A DNA stretch of 37,986 nucleotides, taken from Candidatus Nanopelagicales bacterium. Its GTDB lineage: Bacteria > Actinomycetota > Actinomycetes > S36-B12. A program made the translations under genes and the position numbers. Within the stretch, counting starts at the first letter, position 1, and the number at the start of each line of letters is the position of its first letter. The stretch spans positions 1-37,986 of the forward strand of contig JAPKAV010000009.1 of the NCBI GenBank assembly GCA_028825115.1. The letters run 5' to 3'. The notes under the pieces are model-generated. The model did no database searches and was not told the origin of the DNA. It worked only from the letters and a program-made list of their open reading frames with translations. Positions 8,984 through 36,869 of the stretch are shown here, one piece after another.

Positions 8984-9994
8984 TTAGTGCGTCTCCGCAT
9001 CAAGAGCGCGAGGGCGGCCATGGGTGGATCGCAGCGTGAGTACAGGTTTCATTGTCACCCGCTGCACCGCCCGCTCAGTATCGTCCATTCGACGTGTCAA
9101 CAATCCTACTGCGGTCATTGCCATTTCTTCAAGTGATACGCCCACAGTAGTAAGCCCAAATATGTTCCAACTCGACATGGGAATGTTGTCGAAGCCAACG
9201 AGGGTCACGTCTTCTGGGATCCTCACCCCGAGAGCAGCTGCTTCACTGACGGCACCAAGAGCGATAACGTCGTTGGCGCAGAAGATAGCGGTCGGCTTTG
9301 CATTCCAGAGATACTGAAATCCTTGGGACCCAGTTGTTGAAGAGAAGGGGCCACTAAAAGTGAGTGAGTTGGGAAGGCTTGCCCCAAGCCGTCCAAGGGC
9401 TTGGGCGAAGCCAGTACGCCTTTCGAGGCCGGTACTCGCGGTATCCGGCCCAAAAATAGCTCCGATACGTTGATGTCCCAGCCCAAGGAGGAGCTTTGCC
9501 AAATCCCAAACACCAACGGTGTTGTTCACCACACATGCGTCATATTCTGGCTGGCGGGTGTCTCGGTTGAGGAGCACAAAGGGGACTCCTCTGCGACGCA
9601 ATTCGTAGGGAAGCTGGCTATCCAATTCTGTCGTTGTGAGAATTACGCCGTCCAACGATCCATCGATTATGGGTTCCAATTCAACAGGTTCGTGACCGCG
9701 GTCGGTTACAAGAATGGTGCGATATCCAAGGCGAGCAAGTTCATCATGCACAGGTTCAATGATCGCCGGATAAAACGGGTTCGAAAGTTCGGCGCTGACA
9801 ATTCCAATGCGCCCAGATGTCTGCGTAGAAAGTGTCCGGCCGGCTTGAATCGGAACGTAGCCAAGGGTGCGAGCAGCTTCGCGTACCTTTCGGCGAGTTG
9901 AGGCAGAGACTCCCCACTGGTCGCGCAATGCGCGCGAGACTGTGGGCTGTGACACTCCTGCGAGCCGCGCAACATCGTGACTCGTGATCGCCAT
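8984..9994 (-). CDS. LacI-family transcriptional repressor
   Basis: 336 residues, normal length. The N-terminal HTH (TSHDVARLAGVSQPTVSRAL, about 4-23) is followed by the hinge-helix region ending RTLSTQTSGRIGIV and a periplasmic-binding-type effector domain (NPFYPAIIEPV, DGVILTT, VNNTVG, GHQRIGAIFG, FCANDVIALG, VTLVGFDNIP). The divergent operon begins 96 bp away, and a perfect 14-bp palindrome with a central CG, the usual LacI-type operator form, lies between them. The protein most likely represses the HisD-kinase-lyase-PxpABC operon and perhaps itself, and is released by a pathway intermediate. The effector cannot be told from sequence. Confidence 0.93.
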   Translation of the reverse strand: MAITSHDVARLAGVSQPTVSRALRDQWGVSASTRRKVREAARTLGYVPIQAGRTLSTQTSGRIGIVSAELSNPFYPAIIEPVHDELARLGYRTILVTDRGHEPVELEPIIDGSLDGVILTTTELDSQLPYELRRRGVPFVLLNRDTRQPEYDACVVNNTVGVWDLAKLLLGLGHQRIGAIFGPDTASTGLERRTGFAQALGRLGASLPNSLTFSGPFSSTTGSQGFQYLWNAKPTAIFCANDVIALGAVSEAAALGVRIPEDVTLVGFDNIPMSSWNIFGLTTVGVSLEEMAMTAVGLLTRRMDDTERAVQRVTMKPVLTLRSTHGRPRALDAETH

Positions 9995-10029: not shown

Positions 10030-10058
10030 TTGACATGCATACGTATGCAAAGAATAGT
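10030..10058 (+). promoter_or_regulatory. Promoter with LacI-type operator in its spacer
   Basis: A consensus -35 TTGACA (10030-10035) and a -10 AATAGT (10053-10058, four of six matches) are separated by exactly 17 bp. The spacer contains the perfect 14-bp palindrome TGCATACGTATGCA (10036-10049), with the central CG step typical of LacI/GalR-family operators. A repressor bound there would cover the whole promoter. On the opposite strand TTGCAT within the same palindrome may serve as a -35 for the repressor gene, which would give autoregulation (weaker). The sequence pattern is seen directly; the binding partner is inferred from divergent gene order. Confidence 0.8.
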
Positions 10059-10089
10059 AGGATTACAACTACGAGGCAAGGGAACTGAT

Positions 10090-11412
10090 ATGGCTAAAGT
10101 ACTCAAGGCGCCGGTGGACAAAGAGATTGCTACTGCAGCCCAAGTGGAGGTTCGAGGGGTTGTTGCAGAGGTTATCGCAGATATTCGCTTGCGCGGCGAT
10201 GAAGCCGTACGCGAGTACTCAGAGAAATTTGACAAATGGTCGCCGGAGAACTTTAAGCTCAATCAAGAAGAGATTGAGCGCATCATAAGTGACGTTCCAG
10301 CACAATCCATTGACGACATTAAAGCCGTGCAGGCTAATGTGCGGGCGTTCGCTCAACTCCAGAAGGATTCTTTGAAAGATTTCGAAGTAGAGACCATGCC
10401 TGGAGTGTTCCTTGGGCAAAAAAATATTCCTGTTAACGCTTCGGGGGCCTACGTCCCCGGTGGCCGTTACCCGCTTGTCGCATCAGCTCATATGACAGTT
10501 GTTACCGCGAAAGTTGCGGGCGTCCAACATGTTGCAGCATGTACTCCGCCCATTCGTGGTGAGATTCCCGCGGCCACTATTGCGGCCATGCATCTTGCAG
10601 GTGCAGATGACATTTATTTGCTTGGTGGAGTCCAGGCGGTAGCTGCGATGTCACTGGGCACCGAAACCATTAAGAAGGTCGATATTCTCGCCGGCCCAGG
10701 CAACGCATACGTAGCTGAAGCCAAACGACAACTGTTTGGAGAGGTCGGCATCGATCTGTTCGCCGGACCGACCGAGATTTTGGTGGTTGCAGATGAATAT
10801 GCAGACCCATTTATCGTTGCGGTTGATCTCTTGAGTCAGGCTGAGCACGGCCCAGATTCTCCCGCAATTCTAATTTCAACGTCGGAGGTTGTCGCCCATA
10901 AAGCGATGGAACACATTGACCGCATTCTGCCCGAGATGCCCACGAATGACATGGCCGGGCCAGCGTGGCGGGATCATGGTGAAGTGATCGTCGTTGGCAA
11001 TAGAGATGAAGCATTCGCTCTTGCCGATGAACTCGCGAGTGAGCACGTGCAGATTCTGATGGAGAATCCTCGGGAGGCACTCGAAAAAATGACAGACTAT
11101 GGCGCACTTTTCTTAGGAGAGGGAACCTGTGTCTCTTATGGCGACAAGGTCATTGGCACTAATCACACCCTCCCTACCCGCAAAAGTGCCCGGTATACCG
11201 GCGGACTTTGGGTTGGTAAGTACCTCAAGACGGTCACCTATCAAGAAGTAGTGAACGAGGAATCAAGCACCGAACTTGGCCGCATGTGCGGGCGAGCGAG
11301 TCGAGTTGAGCTGTTCGAAGGCCATGCCCGATCTGGTGACGTGCGGGCGACAAAGTACGCAGGGGATCCCTTGCCATGGGCAGAATGGGCTTTTCAGCCA
11401 CAAAAATCGTGA
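10090..11412 (+). CDS. Histidinol-dehydrogenase-family enzyme (catabolic HisD paralogue, HpsN-like)
   Basis: 440 residues from ATG 10090, which has AAGGGA upstream; longer frames would run back through the promoter and operator. The fold is HisD throughout: NIPVNASGAYVPGGRYPLVA, GPGNAYVAEAKRQLFG, DLFAGPTEILV, SQAEHGPDS with Gln and His metal ligands, ASEHVQ with the catalytic Glu-His pair, THTLPT-like NHTLPTRKSARYTGGLWVGKYLK, and FEGHARSGD with a C-terminal His ligand. HisD oxidises an amino alcohol to an acid in two NAD steps. The sequence style (GQKNIPVNASGAYVPGG) matches paralogues such as sulfopropanediol 3-dehydrogenase HpsN rather than biosynthetic HisD, and no other his gene is near. 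As first gene of the LacI-controlled operon it probably oxidises a primary alcohol of the substrate to a carboxylate. Confidence 0.85.
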   Translation: MAKVLKAPVDKEIATAAQVEVRGVVAEVIADIRLRGDEAVREYSEKFDKWSPENFKLNQEEIERIISDVPAQSIDDIKAVQANVRAFAQLQKDSLKDFEVETMPGVFLGQKNIPVNASGAYVPGGRYPLVASAHMTVVTAKVAGVQHVAACTPPIRGEIPAATIAAMHLAGADDIYLLGGVQAVAAMSLGTETIKKVDILAGPGNAYVAEAKRQLFGEVGIDLFAGPTEILVVADEYADPFIVAVDLLSQAEHGPDSPAILISTSEVVAHKAMEHIDRILPEMPTNDMAGPAWRDHGEVIVVGNRDEAFALADELASEHVQILMENPREALEKMTDYGALFLGEGTCVSYGDKVIGTNHTLPTRKSARYTGGLWVGKYLKTVTYQEVVNEESSTELGRMCGRASRVELFEGHARSGDVRATKYAGDPLPWAEWAFQPQKS

Positions 11413-11446
11413 GCATATTTTTCCGCAAAAGCGCATCGGAGAGCCT

Positions 11447-12448
11447 GTGACAAGCGAAAGTAAGTCAGACGATGCCGGCCGTGAAGGCGGGACCGACTCC
11501 GGCGATCTCTGCCAACTTGTCGAACGCACCCACGGACTTTCCGTTATCGCAGCGCGCTCACTGGGAGGGGAACTCGATACAAATGTTTGGATTCGCGATT
11601 CCCAGGATCGTGAATACACAATCAAGAGATCCACATGCGGTGACCCCCAAGAGATCCGATGGCAGTACTTGGTGCTTGAGCATCTCAATAAAAGGCTCGC
11701 TGGGATCCAGGTTCCCACTCTCGTCCCTACCCTTGAGGGCGATTGGGACGTTGTTTGTGAGCACGGTTCAACCTGGGTCGTGGTCCGACTCGCCAATTGG
11801 GTCCCTGGCCAGGTGATCGCAAGCCACCATCAGCCGCCCCCCAGATTACTCAAAGAATGGGGGCTTTTAGCGGCGAACACCGTTCTTGCGCTGTCAGATT
11901 TTGATCCTGGTTCTGTCCCTCCCACTCATTATTGGGATCTGCGAAAGTCCCTAGTGGCCGTCGAATCCTGTTTAGAGTTTGTTGAGGACCGAGAAAATCG
12001 TCTGGCAGTTGAGCGGTTGATGGAAGGTAGCGAAGCAGCTATTGAAAAATTTGAACAACTTCCACACCAGGTTATCCACCAAGATCTCAATGATTTTAAC
12101 GTCCTGATCAGCGAAGTATCGACAGAAGCCCGAGTTACTGGCCTTTTGGATGTAGGTGACACAGTCTTCGCCCCGCGGCTTTCCGAGCTTATTGTCGCAT
12201 CCGCATACGCGATGCTGCGCCAACCACAGCCATTGTCAGCCGTCGATCAAGTGATTGGCGGATACGCGGAAATATTGCCGCTGCCCGATGCTGAATATGA
12301 CATGGTGAGACAGTTGTCCGGGCTGCGCCTGTGTGTCAATGCGACGACATGGACAAAGCGAGCATCTCTGGAACGAACAATGTACGGACAAAGAAGAATG
12401 GCCGCAACGTGGCCAACAATACGCACGCTCGCAAAAGTAATTGGTTAG
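11447..12448 (+). CDS. Aminoglycoside-phosphotransferase-fold small-molecule kinase
   Basis: 333 residues from GTG 11447, chosen because GGAG at 11438-11441 is 5 nt upstream; the frame is open further back but that part overlaps the dehydrogenase gene. Kinase features are a beta-sheet N-lobe with YTIKRS as the ATP-binding lysine, then HQDLNDFNVLI (catalytic Asp and Asn loop) and LLDVGDTVFAPRLSEL, in which the metal-binding Asp is in DVGD. Canonical APH enzymes read HGDLHPGN and IDWGD; the version here resembles hydroxylysine kinase and the kinase domain of APH-M23-aminotransferase fusion proteins. It would phosphorylate a hydroxyl of a small alcohol or amino alcohol. The downstream phospho-lyase strongly supports such a kinase-lyase pair. 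The substrate is unknown. Confidence 0.8.
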   Translation: MTSESKSDDAGREGGTDSGDLCQLVERTHGLSVIAARSLGGELDTNVWIRDSQDREYTIKRSTCGDPQEIRWQYLVLEHLNKRLAGIQVPTLVPTLEGDWDVVCEHGSTWVVVRLANWVPGQVIASHHQPPPRLLKEWGLLAANTVLALSDFDPGSVPPTHYWDLRKSLVAVESCLEFVEDRENRLAVERLMEGSEAAIEKFEQLPHQVIHQDLNDFNVLISEVSTEARVTGLLDVGDTVFAPRLSELIVASAYAMLRQPQPLSAVDQVIGGYAEILPLPDAEYDMVRQLSGLRLCVNATTWTKRASLERTMYGQRRMAATWPTIRTLAKVIG

Positions 12449-12513
12449 GTTATTGATTGTTAAAGACGTTTCGCCGAAAAATGCGTTAACTTAAGCCATA
12501 CCTAGGAGGTGAA

Positions 12514-14433
12514 GTGGCGATGTCTTTTTGGACTAAGATTCTACCTCAGGGGTACACCATTGTTTCCATCGACCTCTCACCTGGAAGTGATGCCTACGAT
12601 GAGGCGCTTTGGTCCGACCCATTAAGCACAAGTGCTTATATTGACGGCCTCCTGGGCGATAGAAAAATGACAGCTGGAACTATCTCAGCGGGTAGCGTGA
12701 TCATGGCGTGGGCCAATGACTCGCAGCGATCCAGTGATGTGGCCACTACCGCTGAACATGCGTTAGTTATTACTCAACCAGGGACTCAGGTCAGATGGCC
12801 AGGGATGCCGGCCATCGTTCACATGGTTGAACCGAATCGAGTACTCGTCCGGGAATTAGATTCTGGTTCCGCTTTCGCGTTCAACGGAATCGAACCGGGC
12901 GTGGTGACGGGTCAAACGATTTCTGCTGGTGATGTTTTAGGTGCATCAACATCTTTAGTCCACGATTCGGTTATTGGCGATTATTTTTCTATTCAAGTCG
13001 TGACCGATCACAAAAACTCCTATTCGCAACTTGGACTCCTGACCACGCAGGAACTTTTTGAAGCTCGACGAGCTGTAATAGAGGGCGGATTCGACTCACT
13101 TGGTCTGAAGAAAACTACGGGACCACTATCTTCCAGCGAGATAGTCGCTTTGCGGGACAAGAGATTGGCTCGATCGCAGCGGGCTTACTATCGCGTTCCG
13201 CCAGCACTAGTGAGGGCTAAAGGCGTCTGGATGTACGACGAAAACGGTGGCGCATACCTTGACACAATAAATAATGTCACCCACGTGGGTCATAGCAATT
13301 CACGAATAACGAGGGCTGCCAATCGGCAACTGGCTAAACTCAATACAAATTCTCGATTTGTATACGAGGGTCTCGCCCAGTATGCGGATCGCCTGGTTGC
13401 AACGCTCCCAGATCCACTTGAAGTTGTTTTCTTCGTCTGTACGGGGAGTGAGGCCAACGATCTTGCGCTTCGAATATCCAGACAATTCACTAGCCGTCGC
13501 GATGTCGTGATCTTGGATGGTGCCTACCACGGGAACACAACGGCAGTGATGGAGATAAGCCCCAATCGTTATAAGGGTCCGGGGGGGCGAGGCAAGCCGG
13601 AGACAACGCACGAACTTGAAACCCCGGACCTTTATCGTGGCTCATATCGTTACGGAGACACTTCTGCAGGAGCCAACTACGCGGCAGATGCATCGTTGGT
13701 ATTTGAAGGGCTCTCGCAAACCAACAGCCAACCGGCGGCTTTCATTGCTGAATCTCTCATGGGGACTGCGGGCAATGTTGTATTGCCAGATGGCTATCTT
13801 GAAAAGGTATTTGCTACGGCCCGAAGCCACGGTGCACTTTGTGTATCTGACGAAGTACAGGTCGGGGCGGGCCGCTTCGGAAATCACTATTGGGGATTTG
13901 AAGACCAAGGTGTGGTTCCTGACATTGTGACGATGGGGAAGCCGATAGGCAACGGGCATCCAATGGCGGCCGTGGTCACGACTCGCGAAATTGCCCAGGC
14001 TTTCGACGACGGTGTTAAGTACTTCAATACTTTTGCGGGGAATCCTGTGTCCTGTGCAATTGGAATGGAGGTCCTCCAAATTATTGACGATGAAAATTTA
14101 CAAGATAATGCCCAGAATGTTGGCGCCTACCTGTTGGCTTCATTGACTGAGCTCAAGGCCAAGCATGAACTTATCGGCGATGTCAGAGGAAAAGGCCTTT
14201 ATTTGGGTGTCGAATTAGTTCGGGACCGTGAAAATCAAGAACCAGCGAAAAAAGAGGCCGCCTGGATCAGTGAGGAATTGCTCAAGCACGGTGTCATTTC
14301 CTATCCAACAGGGGTTTATGACAATGTCCTAAAAGTGAAGCCCCCGATGGTGTTTGACAAGTCGAACGCAGACTTCTTTATCGAAGGATTGGATCAGGTT
14401 TTCGCTTCGCCCCGACCACTTTTTGAATCCTAA
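12514..14433 (+). CDS. Class-III aminotransferase-fold PLP enzyme with N-terminal M23-like domain; predicted amino-alcohol-phosphate phospho-lyase
   Basis: 639 residues from GTG 12514 (ATG two codons later at 12520 is also plausible; AGGAGG is at 12504-12509). Residues about 1-200 are a beta-rich domain with GQTISAGDVLG, recalling a degenerate M23-peptidase/lipoyl-like fold; the zinc ligands HxxxD and HxH are not evident. From about 220 it is a full class-III aminotransferase fold: VTHVGHSN, CTGSEANDLALR, GAYHGNT, SDEVQVGAGRFG, and PLP Lys476 in TMGKPIGNGHP. DEVQVG-GR and TMGKPIGNGHP are characteristic of the AGXT2L group (ethanolamine-phosphate and 5-phosphohydroxylysine phospho-lyases), which release ammonia and phosphate rather than transaminate. 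With the kinase upstream it reproduces, as separate genes, the APH-M23-aminotransferase fusion known in other bacteria. Confidence 0.85.
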   Translation: MAMSFWTKILPQGYTIVSIDLSPGSDAYDEALWSDPLSTSAYIDGLLGDRKMTAGTISAGSVIMAWANDSQRSSDVATTAEHALVITQPGTQVRWPGMPAIVHMVEPNRVLVRELDSGSAFAFNGIEPGVVTGQTISAGDVLGASTSLVHDSVIGDYFSIQVVTDHKNSYSQLGLLTTQELFEARRAVIEGGFDSLGLKKTTGPLSSSEIVALRDKRLARSQRAYYRVPPALVRAKGVWMYDENGGAYLDTINNVTHVGHSNSRITRAANRQLAKLNTNSRFVYEGLAQYADRLVATLPDPLEVVFFVCTGSEANDLALRISRQFTSRRDVVILDGAYHGNTTAVMEISPNRYKGPGGRGKPETTHELETPDLYRGSYRYGDTSAGANYAADASLVFEGLSQTNSQPAAFIAESLMGTAGNVVLPDGYLEKVFATARSHGALCVSDEVQVGAGRFGNHYWGFEDQGVVPDIVTMGKPIGNGHPMAAVVTTREIAQAFDDGVKYFNTFAGNPVSCAIGMEVLQIIDDENLQDNAQNVGAYLLASLTELKAKHELIGDVRGKGLYLGVELVRDRENQEPAKKEAAWISEELLKHGVISYPTGVYDNVLKVKPPMVFDKSNADFFIEGLDQVFASPRPLFES

Positions 14434-14452
14434 CCCTCGAACAGGAGATCTC

Positions 14453-15226
14453 ATGAACCCTATTATTGATATTAATGCTGATGCAGGCGAGAGTTTTGGA
14501 CGATGGATTCTCGGAAATGACGCAGAACTTCTCCCGCTTGTAAATACCGTGAACATCGCATGTGGATTCCACGCAGGTGACCCGGGAAACATGCGAGCTT
14601 CAGTGCTCTTGTGTAAACGGCACTCACTTAATGCTGGTGCTCACCCCGGGTACCCCGATCTTTTGGGTTTTGGTCGAAGGGCGATGCAATTTTCAGACCG
14701 AGATGTCATTGACTACATCGTTTACCAGGTGGGAGCACTCTGGGGCATAGCCATGGCCGAAGACGTCAGGCTCACTCATGTGAAGCCACATGGCGCCCTG
14801 TATGCATACATTGCACGGAGCCCCGAGCTGGCTTGTCGCCTCGTGGAACAGCTCTTGCGCCTGGATCCACAGTTGGCTTTCCTGATTTCTTCTGGGCCGA
14901 GTGGGCTGACATTGCGCCAAGAGGGTTTCCCTGTAATTTTTGACGCGCCATCAGATCTGGACTACAACGACGATGGTTCTCATCGAATTGAGCCAATACC
15001 TCAGGCTAAAGACCCCGACGAAGTGGGTCGTCGTGCCGTTGAAATCGCGCATGGGAGCGTGACGACTATTTCAGGTAAGACGATTGAGATGCCTGCCGAA
15101 TCTATTTGTGTTCACGGTGATCGGCCAAATGCGGTGGAGGTAGCCAAAGGCGTGCGGCTGCATTTGGCTAATGCCGGTGTTGAAATCCGGGCGATGGAAA
15201 ACCGCAGCTGGATGGCCGGCAGCTAA
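14453..15226 (+). CDS. pxpA: 5-oxoprolinase subunit A (LamB/YcsF family)
   Basis: 257 residues from ATG 14453, with AGGAG at 14443-14447. The family signature is complete: DINADAGESFG (normally DLNADLGE-FG), NIACGFHAGDP, GAHPGYPDLLGFGRR, HVKPHGALY, EVFADR-like FDAPSDLDYNDDG and VHGD near the end. Acidic and His residues in these motifs line the metal/substrate site of PxpA. The FDAPSD segment departs from the common EAFADR sequence, so specificity may differ from 5-oxoproline. PxpA works with PxpB and PxpC in ATP-dependent opening of a lactam, best known for 5-oxoproline to glutamate. Here all three genes overlap or nearly overlap, and biotin components follow. Confidence 0.9.
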   Translation: MNPIIDINADAGESFGRWILGNDAELLPLVNTVNIACGFHAGDPGNMRASVLLCKRHSLNAGAHPGYPDLLGFGRRAMQFSDRDVIDYIVYQVGALWGIAMAEDVRLTHVKPHGALYAYIARSPELACRLVEQLLRLDPQLAFLISSGPSGLTLRQEGFPVIFDAPSDLDYNDDGSHRIEPIPQAKDPDEVGRRAVEIAHGSVTTISGKTIEMPAESICVHGDRPNAVEVAKGVRLHLANAGVEIRAMENRSWMAGS

Positions 15227-16122
15227 TGAATACCTACACCGAGTTTGTAGATGGGGCGCAGGCAAGTTTTGGAGGTGACGAATTCATCTTTGTTGAGGTG
15301 GCGACCGACATGGACCTTGAAGCTACTCTTCGAGTCATTGCTCTTACCGATTCGGTGGCAGCCGCTGAAATTTCCGGTGTGACAGATATTTGTCCGGCGC
15401 ATGTTTCCTACATGCTGCGCGTTGACCCCGATATCAGGGACCCTCGTGACTTACTCCCCATTCTTGCAGAAATACACAAGCAAAAAGCGAAGGATTCGAA
15501 ACTTACGATTGGAAGTCGAATAATAGAAATGCCGATTCTCTACCAGGACCCTTGGTCGCATGAGGTTCTCATGCGTTTCAGGGACAGGCACCAGGATCCA
15601 ACTTCGACTGATCTGGATTATTGTTCCCGCATAAATGGTTTCTCGTCGGCACCGGAATTCATTCACGCCCATTCATCCCGACTGCACATCGCAACATTCG
15701 TGGGTTTCATGCCTGGCAATGCTGAGTGCTACCAACTTGTGCCATCCGAGATGCAACTACAGGCGCCTAAGTACGTTCGACCCAGAACAGACACTCCGGA
15801 TCGCGCACTTGGTTTCGGGGGAGCTTTTAGCACTATTTATCCTGTGCAAGGCGCCGGTGGGTTTCAGCTTCTCGGACGTTGCGCTGCACCGGTTTATGAA
15901 ACAAAAAAACCATTTGGTCCTTTTGAACACAGCACAGTCCTTCCGAAGGGTGGAGATATATTTCAATACCGGTCAATTGAGATGGCGGAATATGAAGATA
16001 TTCGAAGCCGAGTGGAAGCGGGAACGTACCAATATCGAATCGGCATACTCGAATTTGATTTATCACAGTTCCGCGAAGATCCAACTGGATACCCGCTCAC
16101 GCTAGTAGAGGCATTGCCATGA
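15226..16122 (+). CDS. pxpB: 5-oxoprolinase subunit B / KipI-type carboxyltransferase subunit 1
   Basis: 298 residues. The start ATG overlaps the upstream TAA by one base (TAATG). The family core is recognisable in IPVLYQDPW-like IEMPILYQDPW, FVGFMPGNAECYQL, PRTDTPDRALGFGGAFSTIYPVQGAGGFQLLGR and the FEPGD-like ILPKGGDIFQYR. KipI/PxpB proteins are usually about 220-240 residues; the extra length is in the first ~90 residues and the C-terminal tail. KipI and KipA together correspond to the carboxyltransferase domain of urea carboxylase, so with the BCCP and biotin carboxylase of this operon they could form a split, biotin-dependent amide or lactam carboxylase. Confidence 0.85.
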   Translation: MNTYTEFVDGAQASFGGDEFIFVEVATDMDLEATLRVIALTDSVAAAEISGVTDICPAHVSYMLRVDPDIRDPRDLLPILAEIHKQKAKDSKLTIGSRIIEMPILYQDPWSHEVLMRFRDRHQDPTSTDLDYCSRINGFSSAPEFIHAHSSRLHIATFVGFMPGNAECYQLVPSEMQLQAPKYVRPRTDTPDRALGFGGAFSTIYPVQGAGGFQLLGRCAAPVYETKKPFGPFEHSTVLPKGGDIFQYRSIEMAEYEDIRSRVEAGTYQYRIGILEFDLSQFREDPTGYPLTLVEALP

Positions 16123-17102
16123 TTACCGTAATTCAACCTGGCCTATACACAACGGTTCAAGATCGAGGGCGGTTTGGGTTTTACGGCGTTGGATTTCCTC
16201 CGTCTGGATCGATGGATCTGTATTCCAGCGCTGTCGCCAATATTTTAGTTGGCAACCCAGCGAATGCTGCGGTCTTGGAGACAACATTCGTTGGGCCGAC
16301 CCTTGAGTTCGAACGCAATGGGCGTATTGCTGTTACTGGCGCGACAGCAGATATCACGATTGACGGAGTTTCGATTCAGCCGTGGACAATCGTTGAGATT
16401 AAGAAAGGTCAAGTCCTCGCATTTGGTGGCATCTCTGCGGGAGTTCGCAACTACCTCGCCATCTCTGGCGGTATCGGTGTTCAGCCGGTGATGGGAAGTA
16501 GATCGACATACGTTGCATCCAATCTTGGTGGTGTTGAAGGAAGAGCTCTGCTGCCGGGTGACCGTCTGGAAGTACTCGCCGACAGCGAATCTCGCACGAA
16601 CAGAAACCGTTTTGAAATTCCGGAATACTTACGAGTATCCCCAATGCCACATCATGTGATTCGCATTGTGCCGGGGCTGTGCAACTACCTATTAGACCCG
16701 CAATCCCAACAGTTGCTCACGGCTGAGACATTCACGGTTTCGACAGAAGCCAATCGCACCGGCTACCGTCTTACCGGACACCAATTGAGTTTTATTGAAC
16801 GGGAGCAACCGTTTGGAGCGGGGTCCGACCCCAGCAACGTTGTGAACCTCGGCTACCCAGTGGGCTCGCTTCAGGCTCCCAGTGGCACTGAACTCATTTG
16901 CCTCATGCGTGATGCTGTTACCGGTGGAGGCTACGCAACATTAGCTACGGTAATTTCCGTTGACCTAGACATTCTTGCGCAGATGAAATTTCCAGAGACA
17001 GTTTTGTTCGAGACGATCAGTATGGAGGCTGCTCTGCAATTGCGTGCGGAGAGAGGAAAGCGCCTTCAAAGCCTCGTCGAATTGATTGATGCAGTTACGT
17101 AA
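16119..17102 (+). CDS. pxpC: 5-oxoprolinase subunit C / KipA-type biotin-dependent carboxyltransferase
   Basis: 327 residues; ATG 16119 overlaps the preceding stop as ATGA. Conserved elements are IQPGLYTTVQDRGRFGFYGVGFPPSGSMD at the N-terminus, then the cis pattern NPANAAVLETTFVGP, RNYLAISGGI, SRSTYVASNLGG, GRALLPGD, and near the C-terminus NRTGYRLTG and PVGSLQAPSGTELICLMRDAVTGGGYATLATV. These are the hallmark blocks of the KipA/AHS2 family. The protein forms a complex with PxpB. The length is normal. With BCCP and biotin carboxylase downstream, carboxyl transfer onto an amide or lactam nitrogen is possible, with PxpA performing the final hydrolysis (inference). Confidence 0.9.
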   Translation: MITVIQPGLYTTVQDRGRFGFYGVGFPPSGSMDLYSSAVANILVGNPANAAVLETTFVGPTLEFERNGRIAVTGATADITIDGVSIQPWTIVEIKKGQVLAFGGISAGVRNYLAISGGIGVQPVMGSRSTYVASNLGGVEGRALLPGDRLEVLADSESRTNRNRFEIPEYLRVSPMPHHVIRIVPGLCNYLLDPQSQQLLTAETFTVSTEANRTGYRLTGHQLSFIEREQPFGAGSDPSNVVNLGYPVGSLQAPSGTELICLMRDAVTGGGYATLATVISVDLDILAQMKFPETVLFETISMEAALQLRAERGKRLQSLVELIDAVT

Positions 17103-17125
17103 TGACCATCTAATGTGGAGGAACT

Positions 17126-17377
17126 ATGCCTGAAATTCACGAAATTGCAGCCCCATTTCCTGGAGTATTCTACCGACGCGCAGCCCCAGGTTCAGCGCCC
17201 TTGGCAGAGCCTGAACAGGTGATAGCCGTTGGTCATGTGATCGCACTTGTTGAAGTTATGAAGATGTTTCACGAAGTCCAATCGGCAGTTGCAGGCAGAA
17301 TTACAGAATTCTGCGCGGAAGATGGCGATGCTGTTGCTATGGGGCAGATAATCGCCAAAATTGAGTCTCAATCGTGA
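17126..17377 (+). CDS. accB: Biotin carboxyl carrier protein (short BCCP)
   Basis: 83 residues, essentially a bare biotinyl domain: IAAPFPGVFYRR at the N-terminus, VIAVGHVIALVEVMKMFHEVQS with the biotin-accepting Lys46 in the Met-Lys-Met motif, and GDAVAMGQIIAKIES at the C-terminus. It lacks the long Ala/Pro linker of the fatty-acid AccB, as is usual for BCCPs next to pxp genes. A GGAGG-like site (tggagga) is just upstream. It would carry CO2 on biotin between the biotin carboxylase encoded next and the PxpB-PxpC carboxyltransferase. It could alternatively serve another carboxylase, but the tight operon argues against that. Confidence 0.9.
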   Translation: MPEIHEIAAPFPGVFYRRAAPGSAPLAEPEQVIAVGHVIALVEVMKMFHEVQSAVAGRITEFCAEDGDAVAMGQIIAKIESQS

Positions 17378-18723
17378 CAATGACGAGAGTGCTTGTTGCG
17401 AATCGAGGTGAAATCGCTTCGCGGGTAATTCGGGCATGTCAGGAACTCGGCTATGAAACTGTTGCTGCATTTTCCGAAGCGGATCGAGATGCCCGTTGGG
17501 TTCGGGAGGCAGATTCGGCTGTGTGTATTGGGCCCCCGCCAGCGGCAAAGAGTTACCTGAATCGCGAAGCTGTAGTTCAGGCCGCTCTTGACTGCGGTGC
17601 GACTTCGGTTCATCCTGGATATGGATTCCTCGCCGAGAATGAAGTATTCGCTCAGGCAGTTGTGGATGCGGGGCTGATTTGGATTGGGCCCCCGCCGCAG
17701 TGCATCGGATTGATGGGTGATAAGTCTTCGGCGTTAAGGGTGGCTACCCAAGCCGGTGTTCCTACTTTACCCAGATCTGGCGTGCTGGTCTCACTTGATG
17801 AAGCACTGATAGCGGCAGGGGTGCTCGGTTATCCTCTGCTGCTTAAGGCAAATGCCGGTGGCGGGGGCAGAGGTATTCGTCCGATCGAGAGTCCTGATGC
17901 GTTGGTGGTGAGTTTCGATCAGGCACGGGCCGAAGTGGGAGCGGCATTTGGCGACGCCAGCCTGTATCTGGAAAAACTCTTGACAGGTGCCCGGCATGTC
18001 GAAGTGCAAATTATTTGTGACAGTTCGGGTAACAGTATTCATCTCTATGAACGCGATTGCTCCTTACAGCGCCGACGACAAAAAGTGGTAGAGGAGGCCC
18101 CATCTTCATTTATTGACGCGGTGACCCGTGCCGAATTGGCTGAAGCCGCTCTTCGCTTAGCGAGAGCTGTCGATTACATTTCGGTGGGCACCGTTGAGTT
18201 CCTTGTCGCCCAAGATCAAAGCTTCTACTTTATTGAAATGAATACACGAGTTCAAGTAGAACATGGTGTGACCGAATTGGTCACGGGAGTGGACATTGTC
18301 CGCCAACAAATCAGGATTGCTCACGGCCAGCCACTGTCGCTGCAACAAAATGACGTCGCACTTCGCGGCGCAGCGATTGAAGTTCGAGTCAACGCTGAAG
18401 ATCCTGAGATGAGTTTTATGGGCAGTCCGGGTACGCTCACGGTGTTTGAAGCGCCCTCGGGGCCTGGGATTCGTGTTGATTCAGGGTTTGGTTCTGGCGA
18501 CATGGTTCAGCCGTTTTACGACTCACTTGTGTGCAAGATTCTGGCGCACGATGTTGATCGCAAGGCTGCGATCCGAAGACTGGAAATAGCATTGACGCAA
18601 GCAGATATCCAAGGAGTGACTACGAACCTCTCATTTCTCGGTAAAGCCCTGAAATTAATGTCATTTCAAGAAGGAACTCATCACACCCAAACCCTCGAAT
18701 CTGAAATAGCCAGCGGCGGCTAA
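17374..18723 (+). CDS. accC: Biotin carboxylase
   Basis: 449 residues, complete. GTG 17374 overlaps the BCCP stop as GTGA; ATG 17380 is an alternative. Features in order: RVLVANRGEIASRVIRAC, SVHPGYGFLAEN, IGPPPQCIGLMGDK, the glycine-rich ATP loop KANAGGGGRGIR, HVEVQI, ERDCSLQRRRQKVVEEAPSS, VGTVEFL, and the catalytic IEMNTRVQVEH. The C-terminal domain has AIEVRVNAEDP. It carboxylates biotin on BCCP using ATP and bicarbonate. As last gene of the LacI-controlled operon it supplies the carboxyl group for the predicted PxpBC reaction. A hairpin terminator region follows directly. Confidence 0.93.
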   Translation: MTMTRVLVANRGEIASRVIRACQELGYETVAAFSEADRDARWVREADSAVCIGPPPAAKSYLNREAVVQAALDCGATSVHPGYGFLAENEVFAQAVVDAGLIWIGPPPQCIGLMGDKSSALRVATQAGVPTLPRSGVLVSLDEALIAAGVLGYPLLLKANAGGGGRGIRPIESPDALVVSFDQARAEVGAAFGDASLYLEKLLTGARHVEVQIICDSSGNSIHLYERDCSLQRRRQKVVEEAPSSFIDAVTRAELAEAALRLARAVDYISVGTVEFLVAQDQSFYFIEMNTRVQVEHGVTELVTGVDIVRQQIRIAHGQPLSLQQNDVALRGAAIEVRVNAEDPEMSFMGSPGTLTVFEAPSGPGIRVDSGFGSGDMVQPFYDSLVCKILAHDVDRKAAIRRLEIALTQADIQGVTTNLSFLGKALKLMSFQEGTHHTQTLESEIASGG

Positions 18724-19246: not shown

Positions 19247-19247
19247 G
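19201..19247. repeat. 12-bp tandem repeat at the 5' end of the cupin gene
   Basis: Unit GATCTGTTGACT at 19201-19212, 19213-19224 and 19225-19236, followed by GATCTGT (19237-19243) into the start codon. The copies are perfect and in frame, coding TDQS on the minus strand. Because the unit is a multiple of three, copy-number change lengthens or shortens the protein tail without frameshift. It lies across the translation start and overlaps the end of the ADH gene region. Confidence 0.9.
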
Positions 19248-28044: not shown

Positions 28045-28120
28045 AAGTGCTTGCTGGAGGGGCGATTTGACTCTACAGTTTGGTTAATACCTACCGGAGT
28101 TAGTACTAGGGAGCGTGGTT

Positions 28121-29167
28121 ATGGGTAAACTTGAAGTTGGCGTCGGCATTTGGAGTATGCAGTCCACGAAGCAGGGTCCGCGACACTTTTCGTATCTTTA
28201 CAAAGAGCTGATGGAGGATGCGCAGTACTGCGATGAATTGCAAACAATTAAGACGATCTGGCAAACGGAGCATCACTTCTGGTACGACGGTTACTCACCG
28301 GCCCTACTTACGGTGGCTGGCGGTATTGCCGCGGCAACTAAGCACATCAAAATTGGACAATCCACCATGCTGTTCAGCCAGCATGAGGCGCTGCGTGTTG
28401 CGACTCAAGCAGCGGTCGTTGACCAACTCTCAGGCGGCAGACTTGAACTTGGTCTAGGTTTGGGCTACCGAGACAACGAATTCGACGGATTCAACATCGA
28501 CAGGCGCAAGCGCAGGATTCGTTTTGAAGAAGGCATCGAGGTTTTGCGGCGTTCCTGGAGTAACGATCCGGTGAATTTTCACGGCAAGCAATTTGACGTG
28601 CCTGATGTCTCAGTGACCCCCAAACCATTCCAATCAGACGTGCCGATCTGGGTAGCAGCAGTGGGACCGGAGCCTATTAAGCGTGCGGCAAAATTGGGAG
28701 TATCGATTATCCTCTCCGACGCGCTAACCCTTGACCAATTAAGTGAACACATCGAGCTTTACCACAAAACTGCACAGGAATATGGCGTAGATGTTTCCAC
28801 AGCAAAGATGGGAGTGCTGCGCCGAGGATGGGTTGCTGAAACAGATGATGATGCTTACCAAAATGCGCTGAAGTCCCTGCGATTCTTGTTGCGGGATCAA
28901 CTTGGCGGCTGGCGGTATCTCAAAGACGAAAATGGTGAGTCCGTCGGTTTTGATACGCCTGACAAACTGGACGCAGCGGCGGCAAAGCTCGTCACCGTAC
29001 ACGAGCGCACCATTGGCCGGCCCGAAAAAGTTACACGAGGTTTAAGGGAAATCGCAGCAACAGGTTGTGATCACATTATTTTTGGTACCCGATTTGACTC
29101 GCTTCCGCGCCAGAAGTACTTGCGCTCACTTGAATTGCTCGCGACCGAAGTTATCCCGAATATTTAA
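28121..29167 (+). CDS. Luciferase-like (LLM) flavin-dependent monooxygenase, first member of pair B
   Basis: 348 residues from ATG 28121 (AGGGAG at 28108-28113; GTG at 28115 is less likely). Closely parallel to the product at 21700-22758: VGIWSMQSTKQGP, QTEHHFWYDGYSPALLT, HIKIGQSTMLFSQHEALRVATQAAVVDQLSGGRLELGLGLGYRDNEFDGFN, DVPIWVAAVGPEPIKRAAKLG and DQLGGWRYLKDENGESVGFD, the last almost identical in both. The shared GGWRYL(K/S)DENG block implies the same fold detail and perhaps related substrates. It requires reduced flavin. The gene follows the dehydrogenase with a 76-bp gap that could hold a second promoter. It starts the second two-gene LLM module. Confidence 0.88.
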   Translation: MGKLEVGVGIWSMQSTKQGPRHFSYLYKELMEDAQYCDELQTIKTIWQTEHHFWYDGYSPALLTVAGGIAAATKHIKIGQSTMLFSQHEALRVATQAAVVDQLSGGRLELGLGLGYRDNEFDGFNIDRRKRRIRFEEGIEVLRRSWSNDPVNFHGKQFDVPDVSVTPKPFQSDVPIWVAAVGPEPIKRAAKLGVSIILSDALTLDQLSEHIELYHKTAQEYGVDVSTAKMGVLRRGWVAETDDDAYQNALKSLRFLLRDQLGGWRYLKDENGESVGFDTPDKLDAAAAKLVTVHERTIGRPEKVTRGLREIAATGCDHIIFGTRFDSLPRQKYLRSLELLATEVIPNI

Positions 29168-29195
29168 CATGTTCAATTGGTGATTGGAGAAAATT

Positions 29196-30275
29196 ATGCG
29201 TTTCGGACTGGGGCCCATGACATTGGAGTCGGTGCAGGGTTGGCGCTGTGCTGGCTGCCGTAAGCCAGCTAGTGGCTGTTGCGGCCGCAAACAAGTAGAC
29301 ATTTATGAAGAGGTTTTAGAACATGCAGTGACAGCGGAGTGGTGGGGGTTCGACTCCGTTTGGGTTGATGAACGGCACTTCACGCCGGACTCTTTCAATT
29401 CGTCAGCGTCGGTCGTGGCGGCTGGACTTTCACAAAGAACAGAATTTGTGCGAGTGGGAATGATGCCGGTCCTTGGCTTGGTAAATTCGATTTACGTCGC
29501 CGAGGAAGTCGCTTGCATTGACAACATCAACGCGGGCCGAACAATCGTCGCAGGCCAAGTGCCAAATGATGAGACCGTTCGCGGCTGGGCTGGTTCGGGA
29601 GCTTCAAACTCTGCCGATCGTATCGTTGATGACATCGCCGTCCTGCGAAAAGCATGGGGGCCAAATCCATTCTCGCACCACTCAGCGTTTCACAACATCC
29701 CCATGAATAATGAAGAGATTCACGTTCAGGCAAGGGGCCTAGATCGCATTTCGGTGCAGCCCAAGCCCGCTCAATTAGATATGCCGCTGTGGATGTCCGG
29801 TGGGACCGAGGCAGCTGAGGTTGCACGGCGAACCGGTATTCCGTACATGGCCCCCGGCCATTTGACTCTAGAGCAAATGCGTCCGTTGTACGAAGGATTA
29901 AATCCAACTTTTGAACGAGTCGTCCCTTTAATTCGTGATGTTTTCATTGCGCCAACAACGGACGAGGCGCAACGCCTGGCCGGAGCTGCCATTCGTGATT
30001 TGTACAACGCACAAATGCGTGCCGGCCTAGAACTGTCATCATCGGAATTTGACAAACTTGTAATGGACACGATCATTATCGGGGATCCAGACACATGTAT
30101 TGAGCGGTTGTACGGCTACGAACGAGAGTTGGGCGTGAATTATGTAGTTGCACGCTTGGCCTACCACAATATGCACCCGGGAGACACGGCCCGCGCAATT
30201 CAATTGTTCGGCCAGGGCGTCGTTCCAGAGTTTCGAATGTTCGGTCTTCCCGACGAAATCCGGAAGGTGGTATGA
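29196..30275 (+). CDS. Luciferase-like (LLM) flavin-dependent monooxygenase, second member of pair B, with a Cys-rich insertion
   Basis: 359 residues from ATG 29196 (GGAG at 29186-29189). It parallels the product at 22760-23800: MRFGLGPM, WGFDSVWVDERHFTPDSF, EFVRVGMMPVLGLVNSIYVAEEVACIDNINAGRTIV, QPKPAQLDMPLWMSGG and VPEFRMFGLPD. Between strand 1 and helix 1 it has about 15 extra residues (about 15-32) with Cys18, Cys21, Cys28 and Cys29 in a CxxC-x6-CC arrangement plus several basic residues. This insertion is absent from its paralogue. It lies at the barrel mouth, where the substrate pocket is in LLM enzymes, so it could bind a metal or alter specificity. The underlying DNA contains an inverted repeat. 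Confidence 0.87.
   Translation: MRFGLGPMTLESVQGWRCAGCRKPASGCCGRKQVDIYEEVLEHAVTAEWWGFDSVWVDERHFTPDSFNSSASVVAAGLSQRTEFVRVGMMPVLGLVNSIYVAEEVACIDNINAGRTIVAGQVPNDETVRGWAGSGASNSADRIVDDIAVLRKAWGPNPFSHHSAFHNIPMNNEEIHVQARGLDRISVQPKPAQLDMPLWMSGGTEAAEVARRTGIPYMAPGHLTLEQMRPLYEGLNPTFERVVPLIRDVFIAPTTDEAQRLAGAAIRDLYNAQMRAGLELSSSEFDKLVMDTIIIGDPDTCIERLYGYERELGVNYVVARLAYHNMHPGDTARAIQLFGQGVVPEFRMFGLPDEIRKVV
29250..29269. repeat. Inverted repeat inside the Cys-rich insertion of the LLM gene
   Basis: GCTGGCT (29250-29256) and AGCCAGC (29263-29269) are perfect inverted arms around GCCGTA; a further TGGCT follows at 29273-29277. The surrounding ~45 bp encode the residues that the paralogous LLM protein lacks, so this may be the trace of a small hairpin insertion that was domesticated in frame. 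Confidence 0.7.
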
Positions 30276-30276
30276 G

Positions 30277-31605
30277 GTGACAGAAACTTTCGATGAGTTA
30301 GAAGTTCTACCGTGGTCTGAGGTCTCAGAATTGCATGAAGACTTGTTTCAAAAACAATTGGATTATGTTTTAAGCCAATCAGATTTCTATCAACAGAAGT
30401 ATTCAGGTGTTACACGGACTTCGATCACATCGCTGAAGGAACTACCTAACTTACCGCTCACAACGAAAGACGAGCTTCGCGAAAGCCTGTTGGCTCGTCC
30501 ACCGCTCGGATTACACGCCGCGGCCTCGTTGGCTGACATTGTCCAGATCCAATCATCTTCAGGAACAACCGGAATGCCAACTTTCGTAGCTGCCACTGGG
30601 CAAGATATTGAAACGTGGAATTCAATGGGTGCCCGCGTTTTTTATGCCAATGGCTTTCGCCCACGGGACTGGGTAATGCACGCATACGCCATGGGCAGGG
30701 GTTTTGTCGGTGGTCTCGTGAACATTGAGCACCTTCAGCACCTTGGCTGCTGCGTCATTCCGTTGGGCGCCGAGTCGGGAACCGAGCGACTATTGCAGGC
30801 GATAGACCACCTAAAACCTGTCGCCATGTGTGCCACACCCTCAATGGTGAACCACTTAGGGAGTGTTGCTCAGGACGTGCTGGGCAAAAGTGCTTCTGAA
30901 CTTTCGATTCGCAAAATCTCGGTCGGCGGTGAACCTGGAGGAGGCGTCCCAGCTATTCGTCAAAAAATGGAAGAGCTATGGAGCGCAGATGTGCGAGACA
31001 TGATGGGAGGTGCAGACTTTGGGAGTACTTACTGGGCTGAATGCGATGTCAAGGACGGAATGCATCTGTGCAGCCAAGCCGCTTTACACGTTGAGTTAAT
31101 CGACCCCAACACCCTTGAATCAGTGCCGATCGAGGAAGGCGCAACAGGCGAATTGGTATACACCACATTGCGTCGTCAGGCGACACCCTTAATCCGCTAT
31201 CGAATGGGGGACATCATCACGGTTTCAGACATGAGCTGCTCGTGCGGCAGGACCGGCTATCGAATCAAAGCCCACGGTCGGGCAGATGACATGCTTATTG
31301 TTCGCGGCGTAAATGTTTTCCCCGCTGCGGTGAAGGACGTTGTCACGCAATTGGCGCCTGACACAACTGGTTACTTAAAGATCGATTTGGACTTCGACGG
31401 GCACAGCACTTATGAACCCCTCAAGACACGCGTGGAGCAAAGTCAACGTTCAACTTTAAATCCCAGCGAACTGAAGAGAATGGTTGAAGACGAGGTTCGC
31501 GACAAACTGACGGTTCGCGTGGTTGTCTCAATAGTACCGGAGGGAACGATTGAGCGTCCTGGAACGCAAAAAGAGAAACTTTTGGAAAGAATTAAGGTTT
31601 CATAA
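30277..31605 (+). CDS. PaaK-type (phenylacetate-CoA ligase family) CoA ligase
   Basis: 442 residues from GTG 30277, one base after the LLM stop; GGAAGG is at 30262-30267. Longer frames overlap the LLM gene and look non-coding. Features: LDYVLSQSDFYQQKY at the N-terminus, LPLTTKDELR, P-loop SSSGTTG (93-99), the acceptor-pocket region MHAYAMGRGFVGGLVN, SVGGEPGGG, GGADFGSTYWAECD, ELVYTTLRRQATPLIRYRMGDI and the C-terminal GRADDMLIVRGVNVFP. Length and motifs match PaaK and its relatives, which activate aryl or heteroaryl acids with ATP and CoA. The CSCGRTG segment has the Cys pair common in this family. It likely activates the acid made by, or used by, LLM pair B. Confidence 0.92.
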   Translation: MTETFDELEVLPWSEVSELHEDLFQKQLDYVLSQSDFYQQKYSGVTRTSITSLKELPNLPLTTKDELRESLLARPPLGLHAAASLADIVQIQSSSGTTGMPTFVAATGQDIETWNSMGARVFYANGFRPRDWVMHAYAMGRGFVGGLVNIEHLQHLGCCVIPLGAESGTERLLQAIDHLKPVAMCATPSMVNHLGSVAQDVLGKSASELSIRKISVGGEPGGGVPAIRQKMEELWSADVRDMMGGADFGSTYWAECDVKDGMHLCSQAALHVELIDPNTLESVPIEEGATGELVYTTLRRQATPLIRYRMGDIITVSDMSCSCGRTGYRIKAHGRADDMLIVRGVNVFPAAVKDVVTQLAPDTTGYLKIDLDFDGHSTYEPLKTRVEQSQRSTLNPSELKRMVEDEVRDKLTVRVVVSIVPEGTIERPGTQKEKLLERIKVS

Positions 31606-34256: not shown

Positions 34257-34258
34257 TC

Positions 34259-35332: not shown

Positions 35333-35357
35333 AAATAGTGATGGAAGGAAGACGAAA

Positions 35358-36838: not shown

Positions 36839-36869
36839 GCACTCTCGGAAATAATTAATGGAGGTAGTT

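What the first reader, a model, noticed from the sequence alone, without database searches (positions are those of the whole stretch)
10030..18723. LacI-controlled operon joining a HisD-like dehydrogenase, a kinase/phospho-lyase pair and biotin-linked PxpABC: candidate undescribed pathway
Eight closely spaced genes encode a catabolic HisD paralogue, APH-fold kinase, AGXT2L-type phospho-lyase, PxpA, PxpB, PxpC, BCCP and biotin carboxylase. Each pair of functions is known separately: kinase plus phospho-lyase deaminates amino alcohols, and PxpABC opens lactams. Their union in one operon under one repressor suggests a single route. Oxidation of an alcohol to an acid, phosphorylation and elimination of ammonia, and ATP/biotin-dependent opening of a cyclic amide would fit a hydroxylated lactam or hydroxy-diamino acid, for example one related to 5-hydroxylysine or 6-oxopiperidine-2-carboxylate. 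The order of steps and the substrate are inference.
Basis: partly seen in the sequence, partly recalled or inferred. Interest (0 to 1): 0.78.

Follow-up and report, generated by a model that had tools for sequence, protein, structure and literature searches.

The report
Lactam-opening operon with amino-alcohol kinase
An actinobacterium carries an operon in which a ring-opening enzyme for cyclic amides is paired with a kinase and a phosphate-eliminating enzyme, a pairing kept in distant relatives, which points to an undescribed way of eating hydroxylated lactams.

Summary
The eight genes and the divergent LacI are real. The union is half right. One clade of long-type PxpB (8 of 8 tree rows) occurs with an APH kinase and a class III phospho-lyase, on one contig in 7 of 8; one genome's lyase comes from another branch. 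Kinase, phospho-lyase and PxpABC therefore very probably form one route. A ribose-type ABC importer goes with it in 6 of 8 (window: 31702-36761). The HisD paralogue and LacI look like a separate, added pair: 10 of 10 HisD neighbourhoods outside the genus lack the kinase/lyase, and an ATACGTAT palindrome recurs upstream of HisD in two distant genomes. The paralogue is HpsN-like but lacks the sulfonate-recognition His, so DHPS is unlikely. Substrate clue: in the sister PxpB clade 7 of 19 fetched loci have GABA transaminase (3 of 3 tested pass the cut-off), 3 have SSADH. I infer that such Pxp opens gamma-lactams to GABA-type acids and that here the transaminase is replaced by kinase plus phospho-lyase, fitting a hydroxylated gamma-lactam (4-hydroxy-2-pyrrolidinone to GABOB to succinate semialdehyde). 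Substrate and chemistry are inference. Hydroxylysine/6-oxopiperidine is not supported.

The parts
8984..9994 (-). LacI-family repressor, divergent from the operon
   Evidence: Pfam LacI + Peripla_BP_3; a LacI gene 36-41% identical lies within 3 kb of the HisD paralogue in L110, L127, L132
10030..10058 (+). promoter-like TTGACA-N17-AATAGT containing the palindrome TGCATACGTATGCA (10036-10049), putative LacI operator
   Evidence: related palindromes upstream of HisD in L127 (two) and L110; only match at <=1 mismatch in the own genome
10090..11412 (+). HisD paralogue, HpsN-like but with GRYPL instead of GRY(A/S)H; Zn and catalytic residues kept
11447..12448 (+). APH-fold kinase, amino-alcohol kinase by inference
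   Evidence: PF01636; AF2 model pLDDT 89.5; Foldseek first hit aminopropanol kinase 6ef6, but NahK, homoserine kinase and 6ef6 are tied or nearly so in the second alignment
12520..14433 (+). class III PLP phospho-lyase (ETNPPL/AGXT2L type) with N-terminal degenerate LytM/M23-like domain
   Evidence: best solved match ETNPPL 6tor, 425.8 bits; phospholyase 5g4i 298.4
14453..15226 (+). PxpA (LamB/YcsF)
   Evidence: NF003814 261.7 bits, cut-off 226
15226..16122 (+). long-type PxpB (urea-carboxylase-like carboxyltransferase C/D)
16119..17102 (+). PxpC (carboxyltransferase A/B)
17126..17377 (+). biotin carboxyl carrier protein
   Evidence: NF005457 96.9 bits, cut-off 87
17374..18723 (+). biotin carboxylase
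   Evidence: second biotin carboxylase elsewhere in the genome
18733..18757 (.). 11-bp hairpin between the convergent operons (T run on the minus strand)
31702..36761 (+). ribose-type ABC importer (RbsA, two RbsC, SBP), 13 kb downstream; homologues adjoin the kinase/phospho-lyase/pxp genes in relatives
28115..31605 (+). two luciferase-like monooxygenases and a PaaK-like ligase; homologues of the second monooxygenase (63%) and ligase (79%) precede RbsA-RbsC-RbsC-SBP-kinase in G065
36858..37775 (+). EthD-domain protein; homologue (59%) beside kinase-phospho-lyase-PxpA in G004

Best explanation
The operon joins two modules. The core module is a lactam route. A ribose-type ABC importer brings in a lactam or its precursor. 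A biotin-linked, long-type PxpABC opens the ring to an omega-amino acid. Because that acid carries a hydroxyl next to the amino carbon, it is not transaminated but phosphorylated by the APH-fold kinase. The ETNPPL-type PLP enzyme then eliminates phosphate and ammonia to give a semialdehyde. The simplest fit is 4-hydroxy-2-pyrrolidinone -> 4-amino-3-hydroxybutyrate (GABOB) -> its 3-phosphate -> succinate semialdehyde -> succinate. The second module is LacI plus the HpsN-like HisD paralogue. It was placed in front in this genus and oxidises a primary alcohol or aldehyde, either at the end of the same route or of a neighbouring one. Shown: gene content, clade-level linkage, GABA-transaminase/SSADH context of part of the sister Pxp operons, an operator-like palindrome upstream of HisD in three genomes (window included). 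Inferred: every reaction and the substrate.
For: (1) In a 70-row PxpB tree the window-type clade (support 100/99) has 8 rows, all from genomes with a class III phospho-lyase and an APH kinase; on the same contig in 7 of 8, in G004 on two short contigs. (2) The phospho-lyase tree puts 7 linked enzymes in two places (2 changes forced by starred branches) and the G1024 enzyme, a long row, in a third, with Mycobacterium enzymes (99/98), so linkage arose or was kept more than once. The G1024 kinase's only solved match is aminopropanol kinase 6ef6, E 7e-6. (3) Among 146 relatives, window-type kinase (37% identity or more) in 4 and window-type PxpB (over 470 bits) in 3, both in 3: Fisher p 8e-6, with cut-offs set after seeing the scores, the own genome included and relatedness ignored. 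(4) Sister PxpB clade (98/85; joined to the window clade at 94/80, just below the starred limit): of 16 fetched f25 loci (15 in the tree) GabT in 7, GabD in 3, Mo-hydroxylase in 11. 3 of 3 tested f25 GabT pass TIGR00700; the one tested GabD passes TIGR01780. (5) Aestuarium plasmid: PxpA-BCCP-BC-PxpB-PxpC-TorT-RbsA-RbsC, a divergent XRE gene, then GabT-GabD. (6) Glaciibacter: [kinase-lyase]-RbsA-C-C-SBP-PxpABC-BCCP-BC-tartrate/malate-type DH-SSADH-like ALDH; Nocardioides has an ALDH after PxpC. (7) Best solved match of the lyase is ETNPPL.
Against: I know of no biochemistry for any member. GabT is far from universal: 7 of 16 f25 loci, 0 of 3 other fetched sister-clade loci (L180-L182), and no match over 45% in 14 further long-Pxp loci outside that clade (L173-L179, L184-L190); 4 of 14 plasmid regions have a class III enzyme and the three haloarchaeal ones fail the GABA model. 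The SSADH-like ALDH of Glaciibacter scores below its cut-off (580 against 646) and the Nocardioides ALDH is closer to lactaldehyde-type models. The window has no aldehyde dehydrogenase among the ORFs scanned. BCCP and BC are beside the unit in 4 of 8 clade members, BCCP alone in a fifth, so biotin may not be essential. Long branches meet in the PxpB tree (L137/L138 with L163). The window's monooxygenases, CoA ligase and CoA-transferase are not explained by a small hydroxylactam. The kinase fold does not single out a substrate.
Confidence: 0.45

Rival explanations
1. Two unrelated nitrogen-salvage functions share a promoter: the kinase and ETNPPL-type lyase degrade ethanolamine to acetaldehyde, and PxpABC degrades 5-oxoproline to glutamate.
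For: The lyase's best solved relative is ethanolamine-phosphate phospho-lyase; kinase-lyase genes also occur without pxp genes in the fetched stretch, for example beside a B12 diol dehydratase.
Against: The linkage is confined to one PxpB clade and recurs with kinase/lyase of different branches. PxpB and PxpC fail the 5-oxoprolinase equivalog cut-offs. The canonical C. glutamicum and B. subtilis operons carry the transporter PxpT/YcsG (passages of PMC13274462), not a ribose-type importer.
Confidence: 0.2
2. One reading: a single route including HisD for 5-hydroxylysine or 6-oxopiperidine-2-carboxylate.
For: Phospho-lyases of this family are known for 5-phosphohydroxylysine (recalled; the title was seen as a reference).
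Against: HisD was not found with the unit in the 5 lineages outside the genus whose flanks were read; GABA-type, not aminoadipate-type, partners in part of the sister operons; 6-oxopiperidine-2-carboxylate has no hydroxyl for the kinase.
Confidence: 0.07
3. HisD is a working part of the lactam route, oxidising the semialdehyde made by the lyase (as ALDH may do in Nocardioides and Glaciibacter) or a terminal alcohol before ring opening.
For: Same operon and promoter region in two congeneric genomes; HpsN does a 4-electron oxidation and also accepts the aldehyde (passages of PMC11382572); no ALDH among the window ORFs scanned.
Against: The same HisD type with similar palindromes goes with SDR1 and 3HCDH1 homologues in L127; their window counterparts lie at 1284-3011, so HisD may serve that other pathway.
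Confidence: 0.35
4. The lactam carries an N-hydroxyethyl or ethanolamine unit (for example morpholin-3-one), so ring opening leads to free ethanolamine, which the kinase and lyase remove.
For: ETNPPL similarity.
Against: No ether-cleaving or N-dealkylating enzyme was recognised among the genes shared by the linked loci, which were only partly annotated.
Confidence: 0.1

Closest known systems
PxpABC prokaryotic 5-oxoprolinase
   Same: Three subunit families; PxpA passes a subfamily cut-off
   Different: PxpB is long and urea-carboxylase-like, PxpB and PxpC fail equivalog cut-offs, biotin carrier and carboxylase in the operon, ribose-type importer in relatives instead of PxpT
Ethanolamine-phosphate / 5-phosphohydroxylysine phospho-lyase with amino-alcohol kinase (AGXT2L family)
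   Same: Closest solved relative is ETNPPL; kinase next door
   Different: Extra LytM-like N-terminal domain, tied to PxpABC
RMM/aut microcompartment 1-amino-2-propanol pathway
   Same: APH kinase of the same fold, class III enzyme
   Different: No shell-protein gene among the window ORFs scanned with Pfam; lactam opener added. PMC6620236 (passages) proposes a different reaction order for that cluster
Sulfopropanediol dehydrogenase HpsN
   Same: Best solved match (386.9 bits against 260.5 for the best histidinol dehydrogenase); Zn ligands, E/H pair and D-K motif kept
   Different: Sulfonate-recognition His replaced by Leu (GRYPL)
OplAB / CapAB ATP-dependent lactamases
   Same: ATP-dependent opening of lactams
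   Different: Hydantoinase-type proteins; CapAB is said not to be similar to PxpABC (passages of PMC8453981); OplAB has only trace activity on gamma-butyrolactam (passages of PMC11033972)

Membership tests
PxpABC 5-oxoprolinase | PxpA family (NF003814) | tested here: met
   261.7 bits, cut-off 226
PxpABC 5-oxoprolinase | PxpB equivalog TIGR00370 | tested here: not met
   46.7 bits, cut-off 145.55
PxpABC 5-oxoprolinase | PxpC equivalog NF045499 | tested here: not met
   206.7 bits, cut-off 500; domain model TIGR00724 is passed
PxpABC 5-oxoprolinase | ATP-dependent 5-oxoproline hydrolysis | not testable with these tools
   no assay
HpsN sulfopropanediol dehydrogenase | closer to HpsN than to HisD | tested here: met
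   386.9 against 260.5 bits
HpsN sulfopropanediol dehydrogenase | G-R-Y-A/S-H motif with sulfonate-binding His126 (PMC11382572) | tested here: not met
   GRYPL; none of the 12 other rows aligned (11 paralogues, 1 biosynthetic HisD) has His there
HpsN sulfopropanediol dehydrogenase | sulfolactate-degrading partner genes in the genome | not tested
   no search made
Histidinol dehydrogenase (biosynthetic) | sole hisD of the genome | tested here: not met
   second copy on contig C27 scores higher; TIGR00069 is nevertheless passed
ETNPPL-type phospho-lyase | best relative among solved structures is a phospho-lyase | tested here: met
   6tor 425.8 bits, 5g4i 298.4, next 191.6
ETNPPL-type phospho-lyase | elimination of phosphate and ammonia | not testable with these tools
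   no assay
RMM/aut microcompartment system | BMC shell genes | tested here: not met
   none among window ORFs scanned with Pfam; 31702-36761 was not scanned with Pfam but assigned by homology and NCBIfam; rest of the genome not searched
Long-Pxp/BC gamma-lactam route with GabT-GabD (proposed here) | GabT and GabD beside pxp/BC | tested here: not met
   window has kinase and lyase instead; part of the sister clade has them

The most novel reading that the evidence does not exclude
Long-type, biotin-linked PxpABC is an undescribed gamma-lactamase family, the missing enzyme for opening 2-pyrrolidinone to GABA. The window-type clade is its specialised branch for hydroxylated gamma-lactams, in which an amino-alcohol kinase and phospho-lyase replace GABA transaminase.
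Probability: 0.3. Interest if true: 0.78.

Novelty: new variant of a known kind. Interest (0 to 1): 0.57.

Why it matters
[quoted passage not shown] If the reading holds, an operon type now annotated as 5-oxoprolinase or acetyl-CoA carboxylase would supply it, and its hydroxy-lactam variant would add a deamination strategy that avoids a transaminase. Both are directly testable with purified proteins. It also suggests that pxp annotations should be split by PxpB type.

Tried and rejected
DHPS (sulfopropanediol) catabolism was considered because HisD is HpsN-like; rejected because the sulfonate His is missing. Vitamin B6 and carnitine degradation were considered from flanking genes; the matching equivalog cut-offs of the two 3HCDH proteins are not met. 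Kinase specificity from fold: first by Foldseek is aminopropanol kinase, but NahK (Z 25.5), homoserine kinase (24.6) and 6ef6 (24.4) are close in the second alignment. The SBPs of the window and of L045 were compared with solved proteins to name a ligand: mostly sugar-type or unnamed transporter matches. A shared LacI operator for the whole 38-kb region was sought: one site at up to 3 mismatches, and the looser pattern gave 14 sites against 9.4 expected. Viral contigs: no relative. A plasmid search for the kinase gave 125 records, first listed 31.5% identical, not followed. Literature: searches listed no paper on a kinase/phospho-lyase/PxpABC pathway; several listings were capped (for example 12 of 54, 12 of 96, 15 of 144, 12 of 22), and only open-licence papers are held.

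Rows dropped before counts: in the phospho-lyase tree, loci duplicating a genome (L056, L041) and matches shorter than 330 residues; in the PxpB tree, identical rows and matches under 200 residues; L126/G381 is not among its rows. Several of the 16 f25 loci are cut short by contig ends, so 7 of 16 may be low. Genome samples report only the genomes drawn. On checking the draft I added the sister-clade and other long-Pxp loci without GabT and lowered two odds for it (best explanation 0.50 to 0.45, novel case 0.33 to 0.30), and raised one rival from 0.18 to 0.20.
Full report
The observation. Inside the spacer lies a perfect 14-bp palindrome, TGCATACGTATGCA (10036-10049), the only place in the own, incomplete genome at up to one mismatch. 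The promoter scan as a whole is not above chance (8 found, 9.5 expected), so the palindrome and its recurrence elsewhere carry the weight. Gene gaps of -4 to 71 bases and a hairpin after the last gene fit one transcript. A second hisD and a second biotin carboxylase lie elsewhere in this 77.5%-complete genome; no second pxpA was found.

What the parts are. The HisD paralogue is nearest to sulfopropanediol dehydrogenase HpsN (386.9 bits; best histidinol dehydrogenase 260.5). The HpsN paper gives G-R-Y-A/S-H, with the last His recognising the sulfonate, as the mark of HpsN (PMC11382572, passages read). The window has GRYPL; the zinc ligands, Glu-His pair and Asp-Lys motif are kept, and none of the 12 other rows aligned has His there. 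It is a catalytically plausible third type, unlikely to use DHPS. The phospho-lyase is nearest to ETNPPL (425.8 bits) and then to another phospholyase (298.4), well before the next class III enzyme (191.6). Its N-terminal ~200 residues resemble LytM/M23 domains but lack both zinc motifs; that model is weak (pLDDT 61). The kinase model is good (pLDDT 89.5). Foldseek ranks the microcompartment aminopropanol kinase 6ef6 first, but a second aligner puts N-acetylhexosamine kinase (Z 25.5), homoserine kinase (24.6) and 6ef6 (24.4) close together. PxpB is of a long type with urea-carboxylase-like sequence and fails the 5-oxoprolinase model, as does PxpC.

Is the union real? A scan of species genomes with the kinase gave 22 loci. 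Kinase, phospho-lyase and PxpABC stand together in 5 of them: Nocardioides (L035), Actinomadura (L048), Cryobacterium (L045, L172), Glaciibacter (L049, L192), and in the full window order in the congener G009 (L034). In congener G004 kinase-lyase-PxpA and PxpB-PxpC-BCCP are on two short contigs. A tree of 70 PxpB rows puts window, G009, G004 and these four genera, with a row from G1024, in one clade (100/99; a long-branch warning touches L137/L138 and the G1024 row). G1024 turned out to have SDR, APH kinase, phospho-lyase, PxpA, PxpB, PxpC in a row. Its lyase, a long row, falls with Mycobacterium enzymes (99/98), and its kinase's only solved match is 6ef6. In the lyase tree the other linked enzymes fall in two places, with two changes forced by well-supported branches. 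Among 146 relatives the window-type kinase is in 4 genomes and the window-type PxpB in 3, both in 3 (Fisher p = 8e-6; cut-offs set after seeing the scores, own genome included, relatedness ignored). The fourth, G065, ends its contig right after the kinase, and its one PxpB match is of another branch. So all 8 clade members have both functions, 7 on one contig, with more than one source of lyase. I take this as strong evidence for one route. Many related kinase/lyase genes have no pxp genes in the fetched stretch, so the lyase family as such is not tied to Pxp; the PxpB clade is tied to the lyase.

What does not belong to it by descent. HisD stands with the unit only in the window and G009; in G004 the contig begins inside the kinase, and in the other 5 lineages none was found. 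In 10 HisD-paralogue places outside the genus (from 246 genomes) none has a window-type kinase or lyase in the fetched stretch and one (L110) has pxp genes near. In L127 the paralogue (72% identical) is followed by homologues of window SDR1 and 3HCDH1 (1284-3011), with a LacI gene about 1.7 kb away on the other side. A LacI homologue (36-41%) is within 3 kb in 3 of 10 (L110, L127, L132). Upstream of HisD, L127 has TGTATACGTATACA and TGCATACGTATACA. L110 has GTGATGAATACGTATTCATCAC between LacI and a symporter-like gene that precedes HisD. L132 has no ATACGTAT. G009 carries the site with two changes. The regulator and HisD thus look like an older pair, with the lactam unit placed behind them. 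A PucR-type regulator gene lies beside the unit in Nocardioides, Cryobacterium and Glaciibacter and, by homology, Actinomadura; Cryobacterium and Glaciibacter also have a more distant LacI gene (26-28%) in the region.

Importer and flanks. RbsA-RbsC-RbsC-SBP genes like those at window 31702-36761 adjoin the unit in Actinomadura, Cryobacterium, Glaciibacter and Nocardioides; in the window and G009 they lie 13 kb downstream; none was seen in the G1024 stretch. In G065 they stand between homologues of window LLM29 (63%) and the PaaK-like ligase (79%) and the kinase. G004 has a more distant monooxygenase and a homologue of the EthD protein (59%) after PxpA. Nocardioides, Cryobacterium and Glaciibacter instead share a PuuE-like polysaccharide deacetylase relative, an asparaginase and two SDRs.

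Clue to the substrate. Long-type PxpB with BCCP and BC is widespread. The sister clade (98/85, joined to the window clade at 94/80) holds f25 rows and rows from the order of Actinomadura. Of 16 fetched f25 loci, 7 show GABA transaminase, 3 succinate semialdehyde dehydrogenase and 11 a molybdenum hydroxylase; of 3 other fetched sister loci none has GabT. Three of three f25 GabT tested pass TIGR00700 (574.8, 562.2, 533.2; cut-off 506.65) and the one GabD tested passes TIGR01780 (658.5; 646.35). On an Aestuarium plasmid PxpA-BCCP-BC-PxpB-PxpC is followed by TorT-RbsA-RbsC and then GabT-GabD. Against this, 14 further long-Pxp loci outside the sister clade have no GabT match over 45%. Of 14 plasmid regions read, 4 have a class III enzyme and 4 a TorT/Rbs-type importer, and three haloarchaeal class III enzymes do not pass the GABA model. 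In Glaciibacter the unit ends with a tartrate/malate-type dehydrogenase (480 bits, cut-off 470) and an SSADH-like dehydrogenase (580, cut-off 646). A gamma-lactam opened to GABA explains GabT and GabD. A transaminase replaced by kinase and phospho-lyase calls for a hydroxyl beside the amino carbon, hence 4-hydroxy-2-pyrrolidinone, GABOB, succinate semialdehyde as the simplest fit. This is inference from neighbours. It does not explain the window's monooxygenases and CoA genes, which may prepare a larger precursor.

Known and new. Canonical PxpABC is described as an ATP-dependent 5-oxoprolinase with its own transporter (PMC13274462, passages). The ATP-dependent lactamases OplAB and CapAB are hydantoinase-type proteins, CapAB being said not to resemble PxpABC, and gamma-butyrolactam is reported to lack an effective enzyme (PMC8453981 and PMC11033972, passages). 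Ten literature searches (listed under Tried and rejected) showed no paper on this combination; the library is partial and listings were capped. I rate it a new variant of a known kind: known enzyme families in a conserved combination not found described.

Verdict. Observation confirmed. My estimates: single route for kinase, lyase and PxpABC about 0.85; ring-opened hydroxy-amino acid as their meeting point about 0.55; GABOB itself about 0.3; HisD as part of that route about one in three.

Noticed in passing
L054 4619-8927 and L036 8629-10404: Kinase/phospho-lyase genes beside B12-dependent diol dehydratase and its reactivase (L054) or a reactivase (L036), a pairing I have not seen described (no literature search made for it).
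   Followed up: partly
window 25386-26372 (-): The gene here is probably a TrmB-type regulator on the minus strand; the overlapping plus-strand ORF 25314-26417 has no family match.
   Followed up: yes
window 23844-24179: A 111-aa thiolase remnant (Thiolase_C match only); the homologous stretch in congener G009 is as short.
   Followed up: no
window 18779-21535 (-): Small protein without Pfam match, Zn-ADH and PRK07236-type FAD monooxygenase, convergent with the operon; homologues of the small protein and FAD enzyme lie near HisD paralogues in L128 and L129, and all three beside BCCP in G004.
   Followed up: partly
L045 4319-5194, L192, L193: The polysaccharide deacetylase relative next to the unit is very close to 3qbu (475 bits, listed as peptidoglycan deacetylase; H. 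pylori HP0310 by recall), odd company for a lactam pathway; a small-molecule amidohydrolase role is possible.
   Followed up: partly
L223, L225 and f25 loci: Molybdenum hydroxylase (CO/xanthine dehydrogenase family) genes stand beside long-Pxp/BC operons in Sulfitobacter, Diaphorobacter and 11 of 16 f25 loci, possibly making the lactam from a cyclic amine.
   Followed up: partly
L212 (G004 contig C144): No BC lies between BCCP and the convergent gene, while the genome has another long-Pxp/BC operon (L213), suggesting a shared biotin carboxylase.
   Followed up: no
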